64,000 bases of DNA from a bacterium (GTDB taxonomy: Bacteria > Actinomycetota > Thermoleophilia > Solirubrobacterales > Solirubrobacteraceae): contig JAJPKQ010000017.1 in the NCBI GenBank assembly GCA_021323635.1, positions 1 through 64,000 of the forward strand, read 5' to 3'. Numbering within the stretch: the first letter of the stretch is position 1; every line of letters starts with the position of its first letter. This document shows positions 2,071-10,179 of this stretch, in pieces. The notes beneath the pieces are model-generated. The model ran no database searches. It had not been told where the DNA came from and saw nothing but the letters and a program-made list of their open reading frames with translations. Made by a program: the position numbers and the translations under genes.

Positions 2071-3219
2071 TCATATCCGATCCAGCCGCGCCACCTGGAT
2101 CTGGTCGGGGGAGCGACGCTGCGCGCGGTCGGCGACCATCCGCACATCAACCCCTGGCAGCAGCTCGAGCAGCCGCAGCGGCAGCGGCAGCCGCAGGCGG
2201 CTGAGACCGCGTGAGATCCTCGGCGCCCCAAGGAGGATGTATGTGATGTTGTGACGCCGGGCGAAGTCGGCGACAGCGGCGGGAAGGTCGTCTGACTCCT
2301 CGATGTAGAGGGTTGCTCCCAGCACCGCCGCAAGCTGGCGCAGGGCACCGAGCGCGCGACGCGACTCCTCGCTCTCGACCTCGCCGGGTCGCTTCACCCA
2401 CAGCAGCTCCAGCTCGGCGCCAAGGCGCTGCGCGGAGCGCCACGCCCGTCGCACCAAGCGCTGCGCGGAGGCACGCGGCTGAACCAGCGCGAGCACCCGA
2501 TCAGAGACCGCCTGGGGCGCCTCGGTGGCCAAGCTCTCCCCGCGCGCGGGAGGCGCCTCCGCCGTCAGGCGCTTGACCTCCACCTCCTCGGCGATCTGTC
2601 GCAGCGCGATCTCGCGCAGCATCGCCAGGTTCTCGACCCGGAAGAAGTTGTTGAGCGCGAGATCGATCCGCTCAGGCGGGTAGACCTTGCCGGCCCGCAG
2701 CCGTTCGAGCAGCACCTCAGGTGAGAGGTCGATCAGAACGACTTCGTCCGCCCGCGCAAGAAAGCTGTCGGGGATCGTCTCGCGCACGCGCACCCCGGAG
2801 AGTTCGGTGATGCGATCGTTGAGCGACTCCAGATGCTGCACATTGAGCGTCGAGAAGACGTCGATGCCTGCCTCAAGAACGTCCTCGACATCTTCATAGC
2901 GCTTGCCGTGCTCCACGCCGGGCACGTTCGTGTGCGCAAGCTCATCGATCAGGCAGAGCTCGGGGGCGCGCGCAAGGATCCCGGGCAGATCCATCTCCTC
3001 CACCTCCATCCCGCGGTAGGAGATCTTGCGTCGCGGCAGGATCGGCATGCCGCGGGCAAGGCGCTCGATGTCCGCCCGCCCGTGCGTCTCCAGCAGGCCG
3101 ATCACCATGTCGCGACCGGACTGGGCGGCGGCGTAGCCCTCCTGAAGCATTCGGTAGGTCTTGCCGACGCCGGCAGCCATGCCGAAGAAGATCTTGAGAT
3201 GCCCGCGCTTTGCGCTCAC
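2071..3219 (-). CDS. kdpD: KdpD N-terminal sensor protein without kinase domain
   Basis: The 382-residue protein carries the KdpD sensor domain (KRGHLKIFFG, Walker A GMAAGVGKT, then LLETHGR and the Walker B-like LIDELAHTNVPG) at residues about 5-215, followed by a Usp-like domain with an RLVRRAWRSAQRLGAEL helix. It stops there: the four membrane helices and histidine-kinase core of full KdpD (about 890 residues) are absent, and a separate kinase gene lies at the other end of the locus. GTG at 3219 is chosen because the domain begins at once; a TTG at 3276 would overlap the end of kdpB. Stand-alone KdpD sensor halves are known in some bacteria. It probably senses intracellular potassium, ATP or c-di-AMP and regulates the split kinase, by inference. 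Confidence 0.88.
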   Translation of the reverse strand: MSAKRGHLKIFFGMAAGVGKTYRMLQEGYAAAQSGRDMVIGLLETHGRADIERLARGMPILPRRKISYRGMEVEEMDLPGILARAPELCLIDELAHTNVPGVEHGKRYEDVEDVLEAGIDVFSTLNVQHLESLNDRITELSGVRVRETIPDSFLARADEVVLIDLSPEVLLERLRAGKVYPPERIDLALNNFFRVENLAMLREIALRQIAEEVEVKRLTAEAPPARGESLATEAPQAVSDRVLALVQPRASAQRLVRRAWRSAQRLGAELELLWVKRPGEVESEESRRALGALRQLAAVLGATLYIEESDDLPAAVADFARRHNITYILLGAPRISRGLSRLRLPLPLRLLELLPGVDVRMVADRAQRRSPDQIQVARLDRI

Positions 3220-3265
3220 GTGCGCATTCTCGCGGAGATCGCGCAAAGCCGTACCCCGGCTGCGA

Positions 3266-5326
3266 TCAGGCGCCAAGCACGTTGTGCACGAGCAGGTCGA
3301 TCAGCTTGATCCCGGCGAAGGGAGCGATGAGGCCGCCGAGCCCATAGATCAGCAAGTTGCGGCGCAGCAGCGCCCCGGCGCCGACAGGTCGGTAGCGGAC
3401 GCCGCGCAGCGCAAGCGGGATCAGCAGCGGGATGATCAGCGCATTGAAGACGATCGCCGAGATCACCGCTGAGCGCGGGTCCCCGAGGCCCATGATGTTC
3501 AGCGCGTGCAGCGGGCTCCTTTGATGCGGCCCGGTGGCCCACGCCGCCACGAAGATCGCGGGCAGGATCGCGAAGTACTTGGCCACGTCGTTGGCGATCG
3601 AGAAGGTGGTGAGCGCCCCGCGGGTGATCAGCAGCTGCTTGCCAACCTCGACGATCTCGATCAGCTTGGTGGGGTTGGAGTCAAGATCGACCATGTTCCC
3701 GGCCTCGCGCGCGGCCTGCGTGCCGGTGTTCATGGCCACTCCGACATCTGCCTGCGCAAGCGCCGGCGCGTCGTTGGTCCCGTCGCCGGTCATCGCGACC
3801 ATGTAGCCGGCGTGCTGCTGCTCGCGGATCAGCGCCAGCTTGCGCTCCGGCGTGGCTTCGGCCAGGTAGTCGTCGACGCCCGACTCCCCGGCGATCTTTG
3901 CGGCGGTAAGAGCGTTGTCGCCGGTCACCATCACCGTCCTGATGCCCATCGAGCGCAGGTGCTCGAAGCGCTGGCGCATGCCCTCCTTGATCGTGTCCTT
4001 GAGATGGATCACGCCGAGCACCTGGCTGTCGCGTGCAACCGCCAGCGGCGTGCCGCCCTCGCCGGCGCCGCGCTCCAGCTGAGCGTGCAGCTCCGGGGGC
4101 GGATGGCCGCCCTCCGCTTCGACAAAGGCGATCACAGCCTCCCCTGCCCCCTTGCGGATCTGGCTGCCGCCGACGTCCACGCCGCTCATGCGCGTCTGCG
4201 CGCTGAAGGGAACGAACTGGGCGTGCAGGTCGCTCATCTCGTGCTCGCGGATCCCGTAGCGCTTGGCCAGCACCACGATCGAGCGTCCCTCCGGCGTCTC
4301 GTCGGCAAGGGAGGCGAGCTGCGCGGCTTCCGCCAGGTCGGTCTCGCCCACTCCGGGCATCGGTATCAGCTCGGAGGCAAGCCTGTTGCCGACCGTGATC
4401 GTGCCGGTCTTGTCGAGCAGCAGGACGTCTACGTCGCCGGAGGCCTCGACGGCGCGCCCGGAGAGCGCAAGCACGTTGCGGCGCACGAGCCGATCCATGC
4501 CGGCGATGCCGATCGCCGATAACAGCGCGCCGATCGTCGTCGGTATCAGCGCGACCAGCAGCGAGATCAGGCTGGTGTCGGAGATCGAGCTGCCCGCAAA
4601 GAGCGCAAAGGGTCGCAGCGTGGCGACGACGACGACAAAGATCAGCGTCAGCGCCGCAAGCAGGATGCCAAGCGCGATTTCGTTTGGCGTCTTGCGCCGC
4701 TGTGCGCCCTCGACCAGAGCGATCATGCGGTCTAGGAAGGAGCGCCCCGGCTCCTGCGTTATCTCCACCACGAGGCGATCGGAGATGACCTTCGTGCCGC
4801 CCGTGACCGCTGAGCGGTCTCCGCCGGACTCGCGGATCACCGGGGCGGACTCGCCCGTGATCGCCGACTCATCGACGGATGCGATCCCCTCGATCACGGT
4901 CCCGTCACCTGGGATCAGCTCGCCGGCCTCCACGATCACGACGTCGCCGCGCTGAAGCTCGGAGGCGGGAACGCTCGATCCATCGCGCAGGCGCGCGAGC
5001 GTCTCCTTGCGCATCGCTCGCAGCGCCTGAGCCTGGGCGCGGCCGCGCCCCTCGGCGAAGGCCTCCGCGGCGTTGGCGAAGAGCACCGTCAGCCAAAGCC
5101 AGATCGAGATCGTCAGCGTGTACCACGCCGGGTCGCTGCCGCCGAGCGCGCTACCGCCGCCAACCTGGATCAGCCACGTGACGGTGGTGATGAGCGCGCC
5201 GATCTCGACCACGAACATGACCGGGTTGCGGATCTGGATGCGCGGGTCAAGCTTGCGCACGCTGTCGATCGCCGCGCGCAGCGCAAGCTCGCGCGAGAGG
5301 AGCGATCGAGCGCGCCGTTCGCTCAT
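3266..5326 (-). CDS. kdpB: potassium-transporting P-type ATPase subunit B
   Basis: The 686-residue ATPase subunit of the KdpFABC pump couples ATP hydrolysis to high-affinity K+ uptake. Visible hallmarks are the TGES actuator loop (SAITGES, about residue 155), the phosphorylated Asp in DKTGTIT, the hinge [17 protein letters not shown], and the family-specific [18 protein letters not shown] and [10 protein letters not shown] blocks near the C terminus. Membrane segments lie near residues 35-75, 215-270 and 575-680. The ATG overlaps the kdpC stop (ATGA), so translation is probably coupled. The gene order here is A-C-B instead of the usual A-B-C. The length is normal for the family. Confidence 0.97.
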
Positions 5327-6003
5327 CGGGCGCGCGCTCCACTCGCGCGTGTGCGACCGATGCGTTCGAGCGCAAGGTTCAGCTCAAGCACGTTGACGCT
5401 GGGGTTGCCGGCGAAGCCCAGAAACCGTGAGGAGGTGTGGCGGGCGACGAGTCTCAGCACCGCCGCGAGCGGCAGATGACGCAGGGCGGCAACGCGATGC
5501 GCCTGGATGTCGGCGTTGGCGATAGAGATTTCCGGGTCAAGCCCGGATGCGGATGCCGTCACCGCGTCAACGGGAATCTGCGCGATGCTGAGCGTCGGGT
5601 CGTATGGCCTGTTCAGCGCAAGGTATTCGCGGATGCGCCTGGCGTCTTCTGTCTCGGTCAGGATGCCGTTCGGGCCGAGGTTGGAGAAGGTGCTTGCCGC
5701 GCCGTTGTCGGGAAGCGGTTCTGTTGCCGAGGGCCTGCTCTGGAAGTAGAGCGGATCGGCGCGCAGCAGCACCCTGCCTGAGACCTCCGCGGGCCTGCCA
5801 TCCTTGCCGAGCACCGGCAGGGTGAAGGACTGGCCGATGATCGCCGATCCGACGAGCCTGCCGTGGAGCTTCACCTGCTGGCCGTTGGCGGCACCCGGAA
5901 AGGCGAGCTGGGAGATGCCCCAGATCACCAGTGGAAAGACCACGCCCAGCGCGAGCGTGAAGATGAGCAGCGCCAAGGCAGCGGTCTTGAGCTCGCGTCG
6001 CAT
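5323..6003 (-). CDS. kdpC: potassium-transporting ATPase subunit C
   Basis: The 226-residue KdpC stabilises the KdpFABC complex. It has one N-terminal membrane helix ([21 protein letters not shown]), then a periplasm-facing soluble domain with the family signatures [42 protein letters not shown] and the C-terminal NVLELNLAL. It starts 2 bases after kdpA ends and overlaps kdpB by 4 bases. Its position between kdpA and kdpB is atypical: in most operons kdpC follows kdpB. Confidence 0.96.
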
Positions 6004-6005
6004 GA

Positions 6006-7778
6006 TCAGTAGAGGTGCCCGGTGAGTCCTTGCACGATCGGCCCGAGCAGCAGCGCAGGGAAGAAGGTGAGCGCGCCGACGATCACGATCACCGCGGTCA
6101 GCAGCAGCGCAAAGGTCGGGTTGTCGGTGCGCATCGTCCCCAGGCCGGAGGGCGCCACGCGCTTGCCCGCAAGCGATCCCGCGACGGCAAGCACAAGCAG
6201 AATCGGCAGGTAGCGGGCTAGCAGCATGTCAAAGCCGCCGAGGATGTCGGCCATGACGATCCCGTGCGAGTGCAGGTTGCCTGCGAGGGGCTGAGCGAAG
6301 CCGCTGTAGCCGGCAAATGCCGACCCGTTGTTGTTGGCCTGCGAGAGGTAGGCATAGAAGGTCTCCGAGAAGGCCTGCGGGGTGCCCACGGCCGCCTTTG
6401 AGATCGACGTGCGCCCGGCTGCGCTCGCGGTTGCGGCGGCGCTGCAGAGCAGCGCGGCGAGCGGAGTGATCAGCACGCCGAGGCCGGCGAGCTTGATCTC
6501 GCGCGCCTCCAGCTTCTTTCCCAGCCACTCCGGTGTGCGCCCGACCATCAGCCCGCCGATGAAGACCGCAAGCAGGACGTAGAGGAGCAATGAGTAGAGG
6601 CCGGTGCCGACGCCGCCGAAGATGGTCTCAGAGGCCGATAGGTTGGCGAAGGGCACCGCGCCGCCGATGCCCGTATATGACTCCAGCGAGCTGTTGACGG
6701 CGCCGCATGAGGTGACTGTCGTGACCACGTCAAAGAGCGCCGACTCGGCGATGCCAAAGCGCTGCTCCTTGCCTTCCAGGTTGCCGCCCGAGCTGCCCGC
6801 GCGCGCGGCTGTGCGCAGCCCTGCCGCATGCTGAGCCGGAGAGCCTTCGGCCTCTGCGATGTAGGCCACAGCAGCGCCGGCAAGGAACAGCGTCATCACC
6901 ACGCCGAAGATCGCGTAGCCCTGACGGCGGTTGCCGCACATCCGCCCGTACATGAAGATCAGCGCCGCCGGGATGATCAGCACCAGCCACATCTCAACGA
7001 GGTTGGTGAAGGCGTTGGGGTTCTCGAAGGGATGCGCTGAGTTGACGTTGAAGAAGCCGCCGCCGTTTGTGCCGAGCATCTTGACCACCTCCTGCGATGC
7101 AACCGGGCCCATTGCGATCGTCTGCGAGAGCCCGGTGAGCGTTCGCACATGCAGATAGGAGGAGAAGCTCTCGATCACCCCCTGCGAGGCCAGCACGAGC
7201 GCGAAGACGACCGCCAGCGGCAGCATCACGTAGAGGATGGTGCGGACCAGATCCGACCAGAAGTTGCCGATGCTCTTGCCCGTGCGCCCGACGATGCCGC
7301 GGACGAGCGCAACCGCAACGGCTATGCCGACCGCCGCTGAGAGCCAGTTCTGCACCGCCAGGCCGGCCATCTGGCTGAAGTAGGACATCGTCGTCTCCCC
7401 GCTGTAGTACTGCCAGTTGGTGTTGGTCAGGAACGAGGAGGTGGTGTTGAAGGTGACATCCCACGGCGCCGAATGGAAGCCCATCGGGTTCAGCCCGGTG
7501 AAGTCCCACAGCGTCTGCGTGCGCAGGATCAGATAGAGCAGCAGCCACCCCAGCAGCGAGAAGAGGAGCAGCGAGCGCGCGTAGGCCTTCCAGTCCTGGC
7601 CGCGCTTGGGATCGACGCCGATGGCGCGGTAGAGCAGCGCCTCCGGCCGGCCCAGGATCGGCGTCAGCAAGACGCGCTCGCCGCTGTAGAGGCGCGCCAT
7701 ATAGCGACCGAGCGGCGCTGCTGTCCCGGTCAGCACCGCGGCAAAGATGAGGATCGTGAGCCAGCCCGTGAGCGTCAT
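6006..7778 (-). CDS. kdpA: potassium-transporting ATPase subunit A (channel-like)
   Basis: The 590-residue channel-like subunit holds the K+ selectivity filter. All four pore-loop regions are recognisable: SSFLTNTNWQYYSGE, the TNGGGFFNVNSAHPFENP block, TSCGAVNSS and NNNGSAFAGYSG. Ten or so membrane helices are visible along the chain. It is slightly longer than the roughly 557 residues of the E. coli protein, mainly in loops around residues 300-345. Thirty-six bases separate it from the upstream kdpF. It acts in the cytoplasmic membrane with KdpB, KdpC and KdpF under low potassium. Confidence 0.97.
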   Translation of the reverse strand: MTLTGWLTILIFAAVLTGTAAPLGRYMARLYSGERVLLTPILGRPEALLYRAIGVDPKRGQDWKAYARSLLLFSLLGWLLLYLILRTQTLWDFTGLNPMGFHSAPWDVTFNTTSSFLTNTNWQYYSGETTMSYFSQMAGLAVQNWLSAAVGIAVAVALVRGIVGRTGKSIGNFWSDLVRTILYVMLPLAVVFALVLASQGVIESFSSYLHVRTLTGLSQTIAMGPVASQEVVKMLGTNGGGFFNVNSAHPFENPNAFTNLVEMWLVLIIPAALIFMYGRMCGNRRQGYAIFGVVMTLFLAGAAVAYIAEAEGSPAQHAAGLRTAARAGSSGGNLEGKEQRFGIAESALFDVVTTVTSCGAVNSSLESYTGIGGAVPFANLSASETIFGGVGTGLYSLLLYVLLAVFIGGLMVGRTPEWLGKKLEAREIKLAGLGVLITPLAALLCSAAATASAAGRTSISKAAVGTPQAFSETFYAYLSQANNNGSAFAGYSGFAQPLAGNLHSHGIVMADILGGFDMLLARYLPILLVLAVAGSLAGKRVAPSGLGTMRTDNPTFALLLTAVIVIVGALTFFPALLLGPIVQGLTGHLY

Positions 7779-7814
7779 CGGCCGGCCCTCGCGCTCGCTC
7801 GCGGGCCTGGCAAG

Positions 7815-7904
7815 CTAGAGCCGCTCCCCGCGGACGAGCGCATAGAGGAGGTAGGCGCAGACGATCACGGAGACGACCAGGCCGAAGATGTCCGCGCCGC
7901 TCAT
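7815..7904 (-). CDS. kdpF: KdpF, small stabilising subunit of the Kdp pump
   Basis: A 29-codon gene encodes MSGADIFGLVVSVIVCAYL followed by LYALVRGERL: one membrane helix with a short basic C-terminal end, the standard KdpF plan (GL-V hydrophobic core, then Y-ALV-ER). It lies immediately before kdpA, where kdpF is expected. Its ATG overlaps the stop of another micro-ORF upstream (ATGA). KdpF is a lipid-like stabiliser of the KdpABC complex in E. coli. It is too short for routine gene calling. Confidence 0.9.
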   Translation of the reverse strand: MSGADIFGLVVSVIVCAYLLYALVRGERL

Positions 7905-7981
7905 ATGCGCTCGATCGCGTCGAGCGCAAGCAGCAGGAGCGCGAAGAAGCCGACGGCCGCCAGCGCTGAGAGGAAGTCCAT
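7901..7981 (-). CDS. 26-residue membrane micro-protein preceding kdpF
   Basis: ATG at 7981 opens a 26-codon frame: MDFLSALAAVGFFALLLLAL then DAIERI. It is a single predicted membrane helix with acidic and basic residues at its C-terminal end. Its TGA overlaps the kdpF ATG, a coupling arrangement typical of genuine genes. It is the first frame of the kdpFACB unit. I know no named family for it; it may be a second KdpF-like accessory helix or an upstream regulatory peptide. Support rests on coupling, hydrophobicity and position only. Confidence 0.55.
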   Translation of the reverse strand: MDFLSALAAVGFFALLLLALDAIERI

Positions 7982-8034
7982 GCGCGCAGTATTGTCACGG
8001 ATGCGTGTCGTCGGCGTGACGATTTCAGCGCCGA

Positions 8035-8056
8035 CCATAACGATTCCATTACGATT
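8035..8056 (-). promoter_or_regulatory. tandem 11-bp direct repeat upstream of kdp genes, candidate KdpE site
   Basis: Plus-strand ccataacgatt (8035-8045) is followed directly by ccattacgatt (8046-8056), differing at one base. The pair lies 54-75 bases upstream of the first micro-ORF, in the only spacer between the response-regulator gene and the kdp structural genes, and is markedly AT-richer than its surroundings. OmpR-family regulators such as KdpE bind tandem direct repeats about one helical turn apart, so this is the natural operator candidate. No convincing -10/-35 pair could be assigned. Confidence 0.5.
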
Positions 8057-8089
8057 GGATCGCGCGCGGCGGCTGCGCCGCAGCGACCG

Positions 8090-8788
8090 CTAGCAGCCGA
8101 AGCGGTAGCCGATGCCCGAGTCGGTGACGATGAAGCGAGAGCGATTTTCGGGGTCGAGCTTCGCGCGCAGGCGCGCGACGTGCGTTCGCAGCGGCTGGAT
8201 GTCGTCGACGTACTCCGGTCCCCAGACCTCGGCGAGGATGCTGCGGTGGGTGAGCAGCCGCCCGCGGTTGCTGACCAGCATGCGCAGCAGGTCGAACTCG
8301 ATCGGCGTCAGGTGCACTGCGCGGCCGTCGCAGCGAACGCTGTGCGCAGCAAGGTCGACCTCGAGGCCGTCGATCGCAACGCGCGAGCTGCCCTCATCGC
8401 CCCGCGCCCGGCGCAGGACAGCCTGCAGGCGCGCAACGAGCTCGCGGCTGCCGAAGGGCTTGGTGATGTAGTCATCGGCGCCAGCCTGCAGCGCGCGCAC
8501 CTTCTGCTCCTCCTCGCCGACCGCTGAGAGCAGGAGGATCGGCATCTGCGACCAGGTGCGCAGCCGCCTTGTCAGCTCGATACCGTCGCCATCGGGCAGC
8601 AGCAGGTCGATGATCGCCGCCTGCGGGGGGCGCACTGAGGCCCGGTCAAGAGCCTCCGCGGCGCTTGCCGCGCCGATGACCTCGCAGCCGGCCTCCCCCA
8701 GGATCACCTGCAGCGCCCGCAGGATCTGCCTCTCGTCGTCAACGACGAGCACGCGCGCGCCTTCGAGCGGGAAGCGGCCGCCGCTCAT
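8090..8788 (-). CDS. kdpE: OmpR-family response regulator, KdpE-like
   Basis: The 232-residue protein has a receiver domain (residues about 8-122: VLVVDDE acidic pocket, IIDLLLPDGDG with the phosphoacceptor Asp, LLLSAVGEE, and DDYITKPFG with the conserved Lys) and an OmpR/PhoB winged helix (LTPIEFDLLRMLVSNRGRLLT, then the DIQPLRTHVARLRAKLDPE recognition helix). Its ATG overlaps the kinase stop (ATGA), and the kdp genes follow after a 108-base spacer. Function as the activator of the kdp operon is inferred from position and family. Confidence 0.92.
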   Translation of the reverse strand: MSGGRFPLEGARVLVVDDERQILRALQVILGEAGCEVIGAASAAEALDRASVRPPQAAIIDLLLPDGDGIELTRRLRTWSQMPILLLSAVGEEEQKVRALQAGADDYITKPFGSRELVARLQAVLRRARGDEGSSRVAIDGLEVDLAAHSVRCDGRAVHLTPIEFDLLRMLVSNRGRLLTHRSILAEVWGPEYVDDIQPLRTHVARLRAKLDPENRSRFIVTDSGIGYRFGC

Positions 8789-10179
8789 GCTCGCTCGCCG
8801 GCCGCGATCAGACGCGCGCTCTCACTGCGCGCGCCCTCGGCCGCCCCTGCGCGCGCCAGCGATCGCGACGAGTGTCCCTGCGCAGAGGGGCCCGCAATCG
8901 GCAGCTCGAATACGAACACCGCGCCCTGGCCCGGGAGCGAGTCGGCATAGAGGACGCCGCCGTTTGCCTCGACGAAGCCGCGGGCGATCGCCAGGCCGAG
9001 CCCTGAGCCCTTGCGCTCTGAGCTTCCCGCTCCGCGATAGAAGGGCTCGAAGATCCGCTCACGCTCGGCTTCGCCGATGCCCGGCCCCTGATCCACCACC
9101 CGCACGATCACCGTGTCCGGCGCGTGTGCGCCCCCCTCCAGCTGGGCGGCGCGAGCGCGCACGAGCACGTGCGCCCCCTGCGAATGGGTACGGGCGTTCT
9201 CAAGCACGTTGACGAGGGCGCGCTCCAGCTGCAGCGCATCGGCGCGCACCAGCGGCAGCTCAGGGTCGATCGCAAGGGTGAAGCTTCCATCGCCGCCAAT
9301 ATCGTCGATCGCGCTGCGGATAACCTCCTCGATCGAGGTCCAGTCGGCACGGGGGCTCGTGGCGCCGGCCTGCAGGCGCGAGAGATCAAGGAGGTTCTCA
9401 ACCAGGCGCGCAAGACGGGCGGACTCCTCGCGGATGACCGCGGTCAGCTCGGCGCGGCCGCGCTCGGAGAGCGCCTCGCCGGCGAGCGCCTCACCCGCCG
9501 CTGCGATCGCCGTCAGCGGCGAGCGCAGATCGTGGGAGACCGACCGCAGCACCGCTGTCTTGACCGCGTCGGCACGACGCAGCGCGGCGCTCTGCAGCAC
9601 CTCCGCATAGAGCTCTTCGCGACGCAGCGCGGCGCCGAGCAGCGCCTCGAGCGCGGGCACGAGCCGCGCCTGCAGAGCACGTCGCGTGGCGGCAGGGGAT
9701 GCGCTGTGGAGCAGCAGCGTGCCGACGTTTCGCTCGCCGTCGAACAGCGCGATCGCCTCGTGGCGCTCGTCGCCGACCGCGCTCTCCAGCGTGATCGCAA
9801 CTGAGCGCAGCGCAAACACCTCCGCCAGCCGAGCGCCCAGGATCGCGAGCGCCTCCTCGATGCCCTGCTCGCGCAGCAGCAGCCGCGCCATCTCCAGCAC
9901 CAGGTCGGCCTCTCGCACCCGCCCTCGCCAGGTGCGCAAGCCGCGCACGGTGCGCGCGCCCGCGATCGCGCCCGCAGGCAGCGCCGAGGCAAGCGCGCCG
10001 GCAAGCGTCGAGCCGCTGATTGCGGCGATCGCCACCCCCCAGGGCGCACACAGCGCCAGCAGCCAGAGCGCCACGCTGCCGTGCCGCGCCGGGACGGCGA
10101 CCATTGGCGCCACGCTCCCGCCGCGCCCGCTGCGCGGCAGCGCCCGCCATCTGCCGAAGCCCTTTCGCTCCATCGCCAT
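8785..10179 (-). CDS. sensor histidine kinase, KdpD kinase-half homologue
   Basis: The 464-residue kinase has two hydrophobic segments near residues 33-80, a GAF-like region (about 95-210), a dimerisation/phosphoacceptor H box (SVSHDLRSPLTAIAAAGEAL), an N box (NVLENARTHS), G1 (DQGPGIG), an F box (EPFYRG) and G2 (GSGLGLAIARG). This corresponds to the C-terminal half of KdpD; the N-terminal sensor half is encoded separately at 2071-3219. Transcription would run kinase, regulator, then the kdp structural genes. The first ATG at 10179 is used. The Ala/Arg/Ser-rich C-terminal tail after G2 is atypical and probably disordered. Confidence 0.9.
   Translation of the reverse strand: MAMERKGFGRWRALPRSGRGGSVAPMVAVPARHGSVALWLLALCAPWGVAIAAISGSTLAGALASALPAGAIAGARTVRGLRTWRGRVREADLVLEMARLLLREQGIEEALAILGARLAEVFALRSVAITLESAVGDERHEAIALFDGERNVGTLLLHSASPAATRRALQARLVPALEALLGAALRREELYAEVLQSAALRRADAVKTAVLRSVSHDLRSPLTAIAAAGEALAGEALSERGRAELTAVIREESARLARLVENLLDLSRLQAGATSPRADWTSIEEVIRSAIDDIGGDGSFTLAIDPELPLVRADALQLERALVNVLENARTHSQGAHVLVRARAAQLEGGAHAPDTVIVRVVDQGPGIGEAERERIFEPFYRGAGSSERKGSGLGLAIARGFVEANGGVLYADSLPGQGAVFVFELPIAGPSAQGHSSRSLARAGAAEGARSESARLIAAGERA

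What the first reader, a model, noticed from the sequence alone, without database searches (positions are those of the whole stretch)
7901..7981. 26-residue membrane micro-protein coupled to kdpF
A single-helix micro-ORF (MDFLSALAAVGFF...) overlaps the kdpF start by ATGA and is the first frame after the candidate KdpE site. A second KdpF-like helix or a leader peptide would be an unreported part of the Kdp complex or of its regulation.
Basis: partly seen in the sequence, partly recalled or inferred. Interest (0 to 1): 0.55.

Follow-up and report, generated by a model that had tools for sequence, protein, structure and literature searches.

The report
Unreported conserved micro-protein of potassium pump
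Just before kdpF, in the operon for the bacterial emergency potassium pump, lies a 26-residue membrane micro-gene that proves to be conserved next to this pump in many bacterial phyla, carries its own translation start signals and belongs to no catalogued family, so it is probably an overlooked pump component.

Summary
The ORF is real. It lies on the minus strand (7901-7981, MDFLSALAAVGFFALLLLALDAIERI) and its stop overlaps the kdpF start as ATGA. It is not a chance frame. Homologues sit before kdpF (or directly before kdpA) in 33 of 34 Solirubrobacterales-type kdp loci, 34 of 61 other Actinomycetota loci, 72 of 77 named loci from other phyla (53 of them training seeds), 8 of 14 gammaproteobacterial, 7 of 30 Bacteroidota and 2 of 15 Bacillota loci, and not in E. 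coli. A profile built only from other phyla finds the Actinomycetota copies. In whole genomes the good matches lie only beside kdp. The signature is M-x(0,1)-D-x10-F-x10-[DE]-R. Initiation signals mark the start: Shine-Dalgarno in most phyla, a predicted leaderless start below KdpE-like repeats in the window's lineage. It is not detectably a KdpF paralogue. Two relatives have no kdpF in the operon but keep the micro-gene, which overlaps kdpA. No Pfam, NCBIfam, PHROG or PDB match. Best reading: an unrecognised single-helix accessory subunit or regulator of the Kdp pump. Existence is strongly supported; the molecular role is inferred.

The parts
7901..7981 (-). micro-gene, 26 aa plus TGA stop (MDFLSALAAVGFFALLLLALDAIERI)
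7901..7904 (-). ATGA: stop of the micro-gene overlapping the start of kdpF
   Evidence: the overlap is found in 28 of 31 Solirubrobacterales-type loci that have both genes
7988..7993 (-). -10-like AATACT, 6 nt before the ATG: predicted leaderless start
   Evidence: -10-like motif 6-8 nt before the ATG in 22 of 26 loci, 0.71 expected in shuffles; the pattern was chosen after inspection
8036..8052 (-). KdpE-like direct repeat GTAATG-N5-GTTATG
   Evidence: same 6-5-6 layout as the E. coli KdpE half-sites (PMC3264566)
8004..8020 (-). second, imperfect 6-5-6 pair GTCACG-N5-GACACG
   Evidence: read
7815..7904 (-). kdpF, 29 aa
   Evidence: PF09604, 23.7 bits
6006..7778 (-). kdpA
   Evidence: PF03814
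5323..6003 (-). kdpC
   Evidence: PF02669
3266..5326 (-). kdpB
   Evidence: TIGR01497 over its cut-off
2071..3276 (-). KdpD sensor domain protein without a kinase part
   Evidence: PF02702; NF038185 below its cut-off
8090..8788 (-). OmpR/PhoB-type response regulator, KdpE-like
8785..10179 (-). histidine kinase

Best explanation
The ORF is a genuine gene for a 26-28-residue single-helix inner-membrane protein, the first cistron of the kdp operon. Shown by sequence: conserved peptide, kdp linkage, initiation signals, 4-nt coupling to kdpF. Inferred: phosphorylated KdpE binds the tandem repeats under K+ limitation; a leaderless mRNA begins at or next to the micro-gene's AUG; ribosomes translate it and re-initiate at the overlapping kdpF start; the peptide inserts N-out/C-in (D near the N-terminus, [DE]-R at the C-terminus; positive-inside rule recalled, no topology program run) and packs against the KdpA/KdpB membrane domains as an accessory subunit that stabilises or tunes the pump, alongside KdpF or, where kdpF is missing from the operon, without it. 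The binding site and the effect on transport are not shown.
For: Out-of-sample profile: an HMM from 53 non-Actinomycetota peptides hits 66 of 95 Actinomycetota-set regions, 64 at the expected place, all on the coding strand, with 0 hits of 8 bits or more in 20 shuffles. Near and far families align over 26 of 26 columns, E 1.2e-7. 19 of 24 peptides beat all 200 residue shuffles of themselves. pN/pS 0.51. Kdp-only occurrence: 27 of 28 kdpA genomes among 61 relatives, with one further match at a contig end; 24 of 24 best matches in 29 named genomes lie just before kdpA. SD-like motif at 55 of 70 and 27 of 34 starts, or a leaderless layout at 22 of 26. Kept where the operon has no kdpF, L025 and L026. 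Inherited with kdpA: 16 changes against 49.3 shuffled.
Against: No translation or interaction data. Absent from E. coli, whose complex works without it, and from many Bacillota, Bacteroidota and some Actinomycetota loci. Less constrained than kdpF (pN/pS 0.51 against 0.25). No significant helical periodicity of conservation, p 0.36. The window's own copy is divergent (31-50% identity to the others).
Confidence: 0.65

Rival explanations
1. Leader cistron only: its translation, not its product, matters. Ribosomes loading at the leaderless AUG or the SD are handed to kdpF through the ATGA overlap, and the peptide is a by-product.
For: 4-nt overlap with kdpF in 28 of 31 and 31 of 33 Actinomycetota loci; predicted leaderless start; the mRNA of micro-gene plus kdpF folds strongly, z -2.9.
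Against: Residue-level conservation across phyla. In other named phyla 59 of 72 loci do not overlap. Kept without kdpF. No terminator-like site and no Rfam match over its gathering score.
Confidence: 0.13
2. The membrane peptide acts on the sensor (KdpD or the separate histidine kinase), as a feedback regulator of the two-component system, rather than on the pump.
For: Small membrane peptides that act on sensor kinases are known (stated in the introduction of PMC3618439, passages). It is the first gene under the KdpE-like site.
Against: It stays with kdpF/kdpA in every layout seen, including direct overlap with kdpA; linkage to the kinase genes was not surveyed.
Confidence: 0.12
3. It is a diverged duplicate of KdpF, a second copy of the same subunit.
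For: Same size, same place, one helix, acidic-basic C-terminal end in both.
Against: hhalign probability 3.2% and 1.6%; KdpF scores at most 4.3 bits on the micro HMM; no Pfam KdpF match for the window peptide.
Confidence: 0.08
4. Chance open frame in GC-rich DNA.
For: It is short; the window's own copy scores only 11.2 bits on the other-phyla HMM.
Against: together; at 12 bits or more no match was on the wrong strand or elsewhere in the 232 upstream regions grouped.
Confidence: 0.02

Closest known systems
KdpF (PF09604 / TIGR02115), single-helix subunit of KdpFABC
   Same: About 26-29 residues, one hydrophobic helix, acidic-basic C-terminal end, encoded before kdpA
   Different: No detectable homology; different conserved positions (D3, F14, [DE]25-R26 against Y, AL and E-[RK]-F in KdpF); both genes stand side by side
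Small single-helix accessory peptides of transporters and oxidases (CydX, AcrZ, phospholamban/sarcolipin; listings and passages, otherwise recalled)
   Same: Tiny membrane peptide encoded or acting with a large membrane complex
   Different: No sequence family shared; partner and effect unknown here
M. smegmatis kdp '5'-UTR' / MSMEG_5391 (PMC5401905, section 21 read)
   Same: Transcript starts 120 nt before the kdpF GTG; in mycobacteria-like loci here the micro-gene start is 80 nt before kdpF, inside such a stretch
   Different: The paper treats the stretch as untranslated and dismisses MSMEG_5391, a frame that contains kdpF; no micro-gene is mentioned in the parts read
AZOLI_RS33665, 'hypothetical protein' of Azospirillum lipoferum 4B
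   Same: Contains the micro-protein at its C-terminus, just before kdpF
   Different: Annotated without a family; the only annotated one among the 7 of 8 inspected plasmid records that hold the peptide

Membership tests
KdpF family (PF09604) | Match to the KdpF profile | tested here: not met
   0 families for the window peptide in Pfam and NCBIfam; hhalign 3.2% and 1.6%
KdpF family (PF09604) | C-terminal Y-L-x-Y-A-L-x-R-P/G-E-[RK]-[FL] type end | tested here: not met
   alignments A2, A3 against A4
KdpF family (PF09604) | Encoded in the kdp operon before kdpA | tested here: met
Single-helix accessory peptides of membrane complexes | Short, one hydrophobic helix | tested here: met
   26-28 residues with a hydrophobic run between D3 and [DE]25; by reading, no topology program run
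Single-helix accessory peptides of membrane complexes | Conserved as a protein and linked to one complex | tested here: met
Single-helix accessory peptides of membrane complexes | Physical association with the complex and an effect on it | not testable with these tools
   needs pull-down, deletion, cryo-EM
Leader peptide / attenuator | Alternative terminator or known RNA element after the ORF | tested here: not met
   no terminator-like site, no Rfam match over its gathering score
Leader peptide / attenuator | Peptide sequence unconstrained apart from control codons | tested here: not met
   D, F and [DE]R columns fixed over 88 non-redundant peptides
Leader peptide / attenuator | Translational coupling to the next gene | tested here: inconclusive
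   4-nt overlap is the rule in Actinomycetota, rare in the other named phyla; coupling itself not measured

The most novel reading that the evidence does not exclude
Kdp pumps of many bacterial phyla are five-subunit machines. The E. coli KdpFABC studied for decades belongs to a lineage that lacks the fifth, single-helix subunit. In some lineages this peptide has taken over from KdpF, and the reported 5'-UTR of kdp in mycobacteria is coding.
Probability: 0.4. Interest if true: 0.85.

Novelty: new member of a known kind. Interest (0 to 1): 0.7.

Why it matters
Kdp is a textbook high-affinity potassium pump with many solved structures, nearly all recalled to be of the E. coli complex, which lacks this gene. 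If the micro-protein is a subunit, the composition of the pump in much of the bacterial world is incomplete in databases and in expression constructs that start at kdpF or kdpA. It also changes the reading of published 5'-UTR regions of kdp, and gives a compact test case for how one-helix peptides tune P-type ATPases. It is immediately testable in culturable hosts such as Streptomyces, Rhizobium and Myxococcus.

Tried and rejected
KdpF paralogy: tested by Pfam, NCBIfam, hhalign and cross-scoring and not supported, though short helices can hide descent. Helical conservation moment as evidence of a packing face: not significant, p 0.36. Known RNA element or attenuator: none. A generic sigma-70 promoter: none found by the scan; the -10 argument rests on conserved position, and its pattern was chosen after seeing the sequences. 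Fusions of the micro-protein to KdpF: none labelled. KdpF 'absence' in G031 and G035 rests mainly on the operon sequence: the Pfam search gave only sub-cut-off hits in long frames there, but it also missed the divergent KdpF of G033. No structure prediction was run: the peptide is under the 30-residue limit, and complexes cannot be modelled with the tool.

Literature: nine searches gave no description of this gene. Passages were read in PMC8552747, PMC10117811, PMC3618439, PMC10903887, PMC5401905 (also section 21 whole), PMC10654040, PMC10117765, PMC8385062 and PMC3264566; a find in PMC11133741 returned no occurrence of kdp. Only open-licence papers are held and supplements were not readable, so Ribo-seq tables may list it.

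Counting caveats: some loci were fetched twice and so stand in two groups (L015/L032, L077/L222, L093/L200, L094/L181, L100/L202, judged from contig lengths and coordinates). L028 (no upstream sequence) was dropped, L010 is cut by its contig end, and some second or partial KdpA places were not fetched. Of the 39 kdpA-positive genomes, 30 loci were examined. L194, L211-L213 and L215 (partial or sub-cut-off KdpA) were not counted. Ten Actinomycetota peptides and 24 Solirubrobacterales-type peptides are in the final HMM, so the independent test is, not.

Full report
What is there. The finding lies on the minus strand. Reading 7981 to 7901 gives MDFLSALAAVGFFALLLLALDAIERI and TGA, and the last four bases are the ATGA of the kdpF start. 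The operon continues kdpF, kdpA, kdpC, kdpB and a kinase-less KdpD sensor protein, with a response regulator and a histidine kinase upstream. The nearest named loci by KdpA are Solirubrobacterales (Actinomycetota) MAGs and Solirubrobacter soli. The window is G000:C33.

Conservation near home. KdpA occurs in 28 of 61 genomes of the relatives sample. Reading upstream of kdpA shows the same peptide nearly everywhere, MD..AI......F..L....EGIDR[IV], nearly always ending in ATGA over kdpF. The substitution pattern is that of a coding frame: pN/pS 0.51 in frame against 0.92 and 1.65 in the other two, and no column shuffle of 200 reached it (pS is near saturation). kdpF itself is tighter, 0.25. A profile of 24 such peptides was run over the 61 genomes. 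It matched with E<0.01 in 27 of the 28 kdpA genomes and in one further genome at the very end of a contig; the weaker hits (E 0.03-0.09) lie in longer frames and look like chance. Since most of the 24 peptides come from these genomes, the informative part is the lack of matches away from kdp. The kdpA genome without it, G053, has a KdpF-like frame but no micro-gene.

Conservation far away. Eighty named KdpA loci from other genomes showed a peptide of the same size before kdpF in Alpha-, Beta-, Gamma- and Deltaproteobacteria, Acidobacteria, Gemmatimonadetes, Myxococcus and Archangium, Chloroflexi and Eremiobacterota, with the pattern xD.......FF.L...Y...C[DE]RL. An HMM made only from 53 of these, none from Actinomycetota, was then run on six-frame segments of 95 Actinomycetota-set upstream regions. 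Sixty-six had a hit, all on the coding strand and 64 at the expected place; the two others were L162 and L174. None of 20 base shuffles gave a hit of 8 bits, against 43 real loci. Composition is not the reason: 19 of 24 peptides beat all 200 residue shuffles of themselves, and in the other five 1-4 of 200 shuffles did as well. Profile-profile comparison of the near and far sets aligns all 26 columns without a gap, E 1.2e-7.

Distribution and specificity. With the final HMM at 12 bits: 33 of 34 Solirubrobacterales-type, 72 of 77 other named, 34 of 61 other Actinomycetota, 8 of 14 gammaproteobacterial, 2 of 15 Bacillota and 7 of 30 Bacteroidota loci, 0 of 1 for E. coli K-12; no best match at that score lay on the other strand or elsewhere in a scanned region (training overlap and duplicate loci are told in Tried and rejected). 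In 29 whole genomes, 24 had a match; all 24 best matches lie 97-438 nt before kdpA, the one further strong match lies before a second kdpA, and one weak match (E 0.088) lies in a 314-aa frame. On a KdpA tree of 196 rows the trait needs 16 changes against 49.3 for shuffled labels, so it travels with kdpA and has been lost or gained repeatedly (FastTree, many weak nodes).

Start signals. In most phyla the start codon has a Shine-Dalgarno-like motif at -17 to -5: 55 of 70 named and 27 of 34 Actinomycetota loci, against 8 and 8, and 3 and 2, at two control positions; the ten Streptomyces-like loci printed carry AGGAG (the name Streptomyces is recalled from the sequence type). Solirubrobacterales-type loci lack it (1 of 31). 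Instead 22 of 26 have a -10-like hexamer 6-8 nt before the ATG (mean 0.71 in shuffles), which predicts a leaderless mRNA that begins at the micro-gene. Further upstream are 6-5-6 direct repeats GTNAYG, strict in 14 of 28 loci and with a mean of 0.0 loci in shuffles; the window copy at 8036-8052 is the only one in 64 kb. The 6-bp repeats with a 5-bp spacer agree with the KdpE half-sites described in E. coli (PMC3264566, passages).

Relation to kdpF and to translation of the operon. The 4-nt overlap is the rule in Actinomycetota (28 of 31 and 31 of 33) but not among the other named phyla (13 of 72). In two family members, L025 and L026, there is no kdpF in the operon, and the micro-gene overlaps kdpA itself by GTGA or ATGA; a genome-wide Pfam search found no credible KdpF there (with the limit told in Tried and rejected). 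So the peptide is not merely a leader for kdpF. It is not KdpF by any profile test.

Is it known? No Pfam or NCBIfam match over a cut-off for the window peptide or for nine typed representatives, one of them the third Bradyrhizobium peptide mentioned under Noticed in passing, no PHROG, no PDB chain. A rhizobial copy is found by tblastn in 164 plasmid records; of the 60 rows listed, 54 show no gene there, 5 records have no annotation, and the single 'hypothetical protein' is an opposite-strand call (the gene table of that collection is incomplete). One copy, in Azospirillum lipoferum 4B, is inside a 42-aa 'hypothetical protein'. In M. smegmatis 5'-RACE put the kdp transcript start 120 nt before kdpF, and the stretch was called a 5'-UTR (PMC5401905); in mycobacteria-like loci here the micro-gene ATG lies 80 nt before kdpF, so a homologue there would be transcribed under K+ limitation. 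This last step is an inference, since that genome was not identified among my loci. None of the nine literature searches (listed in Tried and rejected) turned up a description.

How it most likely works. KdpE activates the promoter under K+ limitation; the mRNA is translated from the micro-gene on; the one-helix product enters the membrane and joins the Kdp complex as an accessory subunit. Shown: gene reality at the level of sequence, linkage, signals, overlap. Inferred: insertion, orientation, association, effect. The strongest rival is a pure leader-cistron role, which the residue-level conservation and the non-overlapping arrangement in most other phyla speak against. A null result to report: the conserved core has no significant helical periodicity.

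Judgement. By kind it is a new member of the class of one-helix accessory peptides; its breadth and its place in a classic operon make it of real interest.

Noticed in passing
L050, L053, L056, L066, L072, L074, L075, L080, L085, L090, L102, between kdpF and kdpA: Bradyrhizobium loci carry a third small hydrophobic ORF (about 34 aa, ending close to kdpA) between kdpF and kdpA; no Pfam or NCBIfam match over a cut-off for the one scanned.
   Followed up: partly
window 2071-10179: Gene order is F-A-C-B (kdpC before kdpB), and the KdpD sensor domain and the histidine kinase are separate proteins at opposite ends of the cluster.
   Followed up: no
L005, L012, L013, L014, L016, L018, L023, L024, L030, L178 upstream of kdpA: Many congeneric loci have a kdpF frame that starts at the ATGA overlap with a roughly 10-15-residue N-terminal extension ending in a conserved (F)xxH-M before the usual start; the window lacks it.
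   Followed up: no
L116 3716-3889: Phyllobacterium plasmid: an annotated 57-aa hypothetical protein lies between kdpA and kdpB and overlaps the kdpB start.
   Followed up: no
L158, L159, L161, L163, L166, L170, L173, L175, L176: A group of Actinomycetota loci has a KdpF-like small ORF with an odd C-terminus (..GGD(E/G)R) and no micro-gene.
   Followed up: no
window 7760-7981 (-): The predicted RNA of micro-gene plus kdpF folds more strongly than shuffles (z -2.9, 0 of 200 as good), possibly linked to coupling.
   Followed up: no
G018 (loci L005, L030, L179): One congeneric genome holds three kdpA copies, each with its own micro-gene upstream.
   Followed up: no
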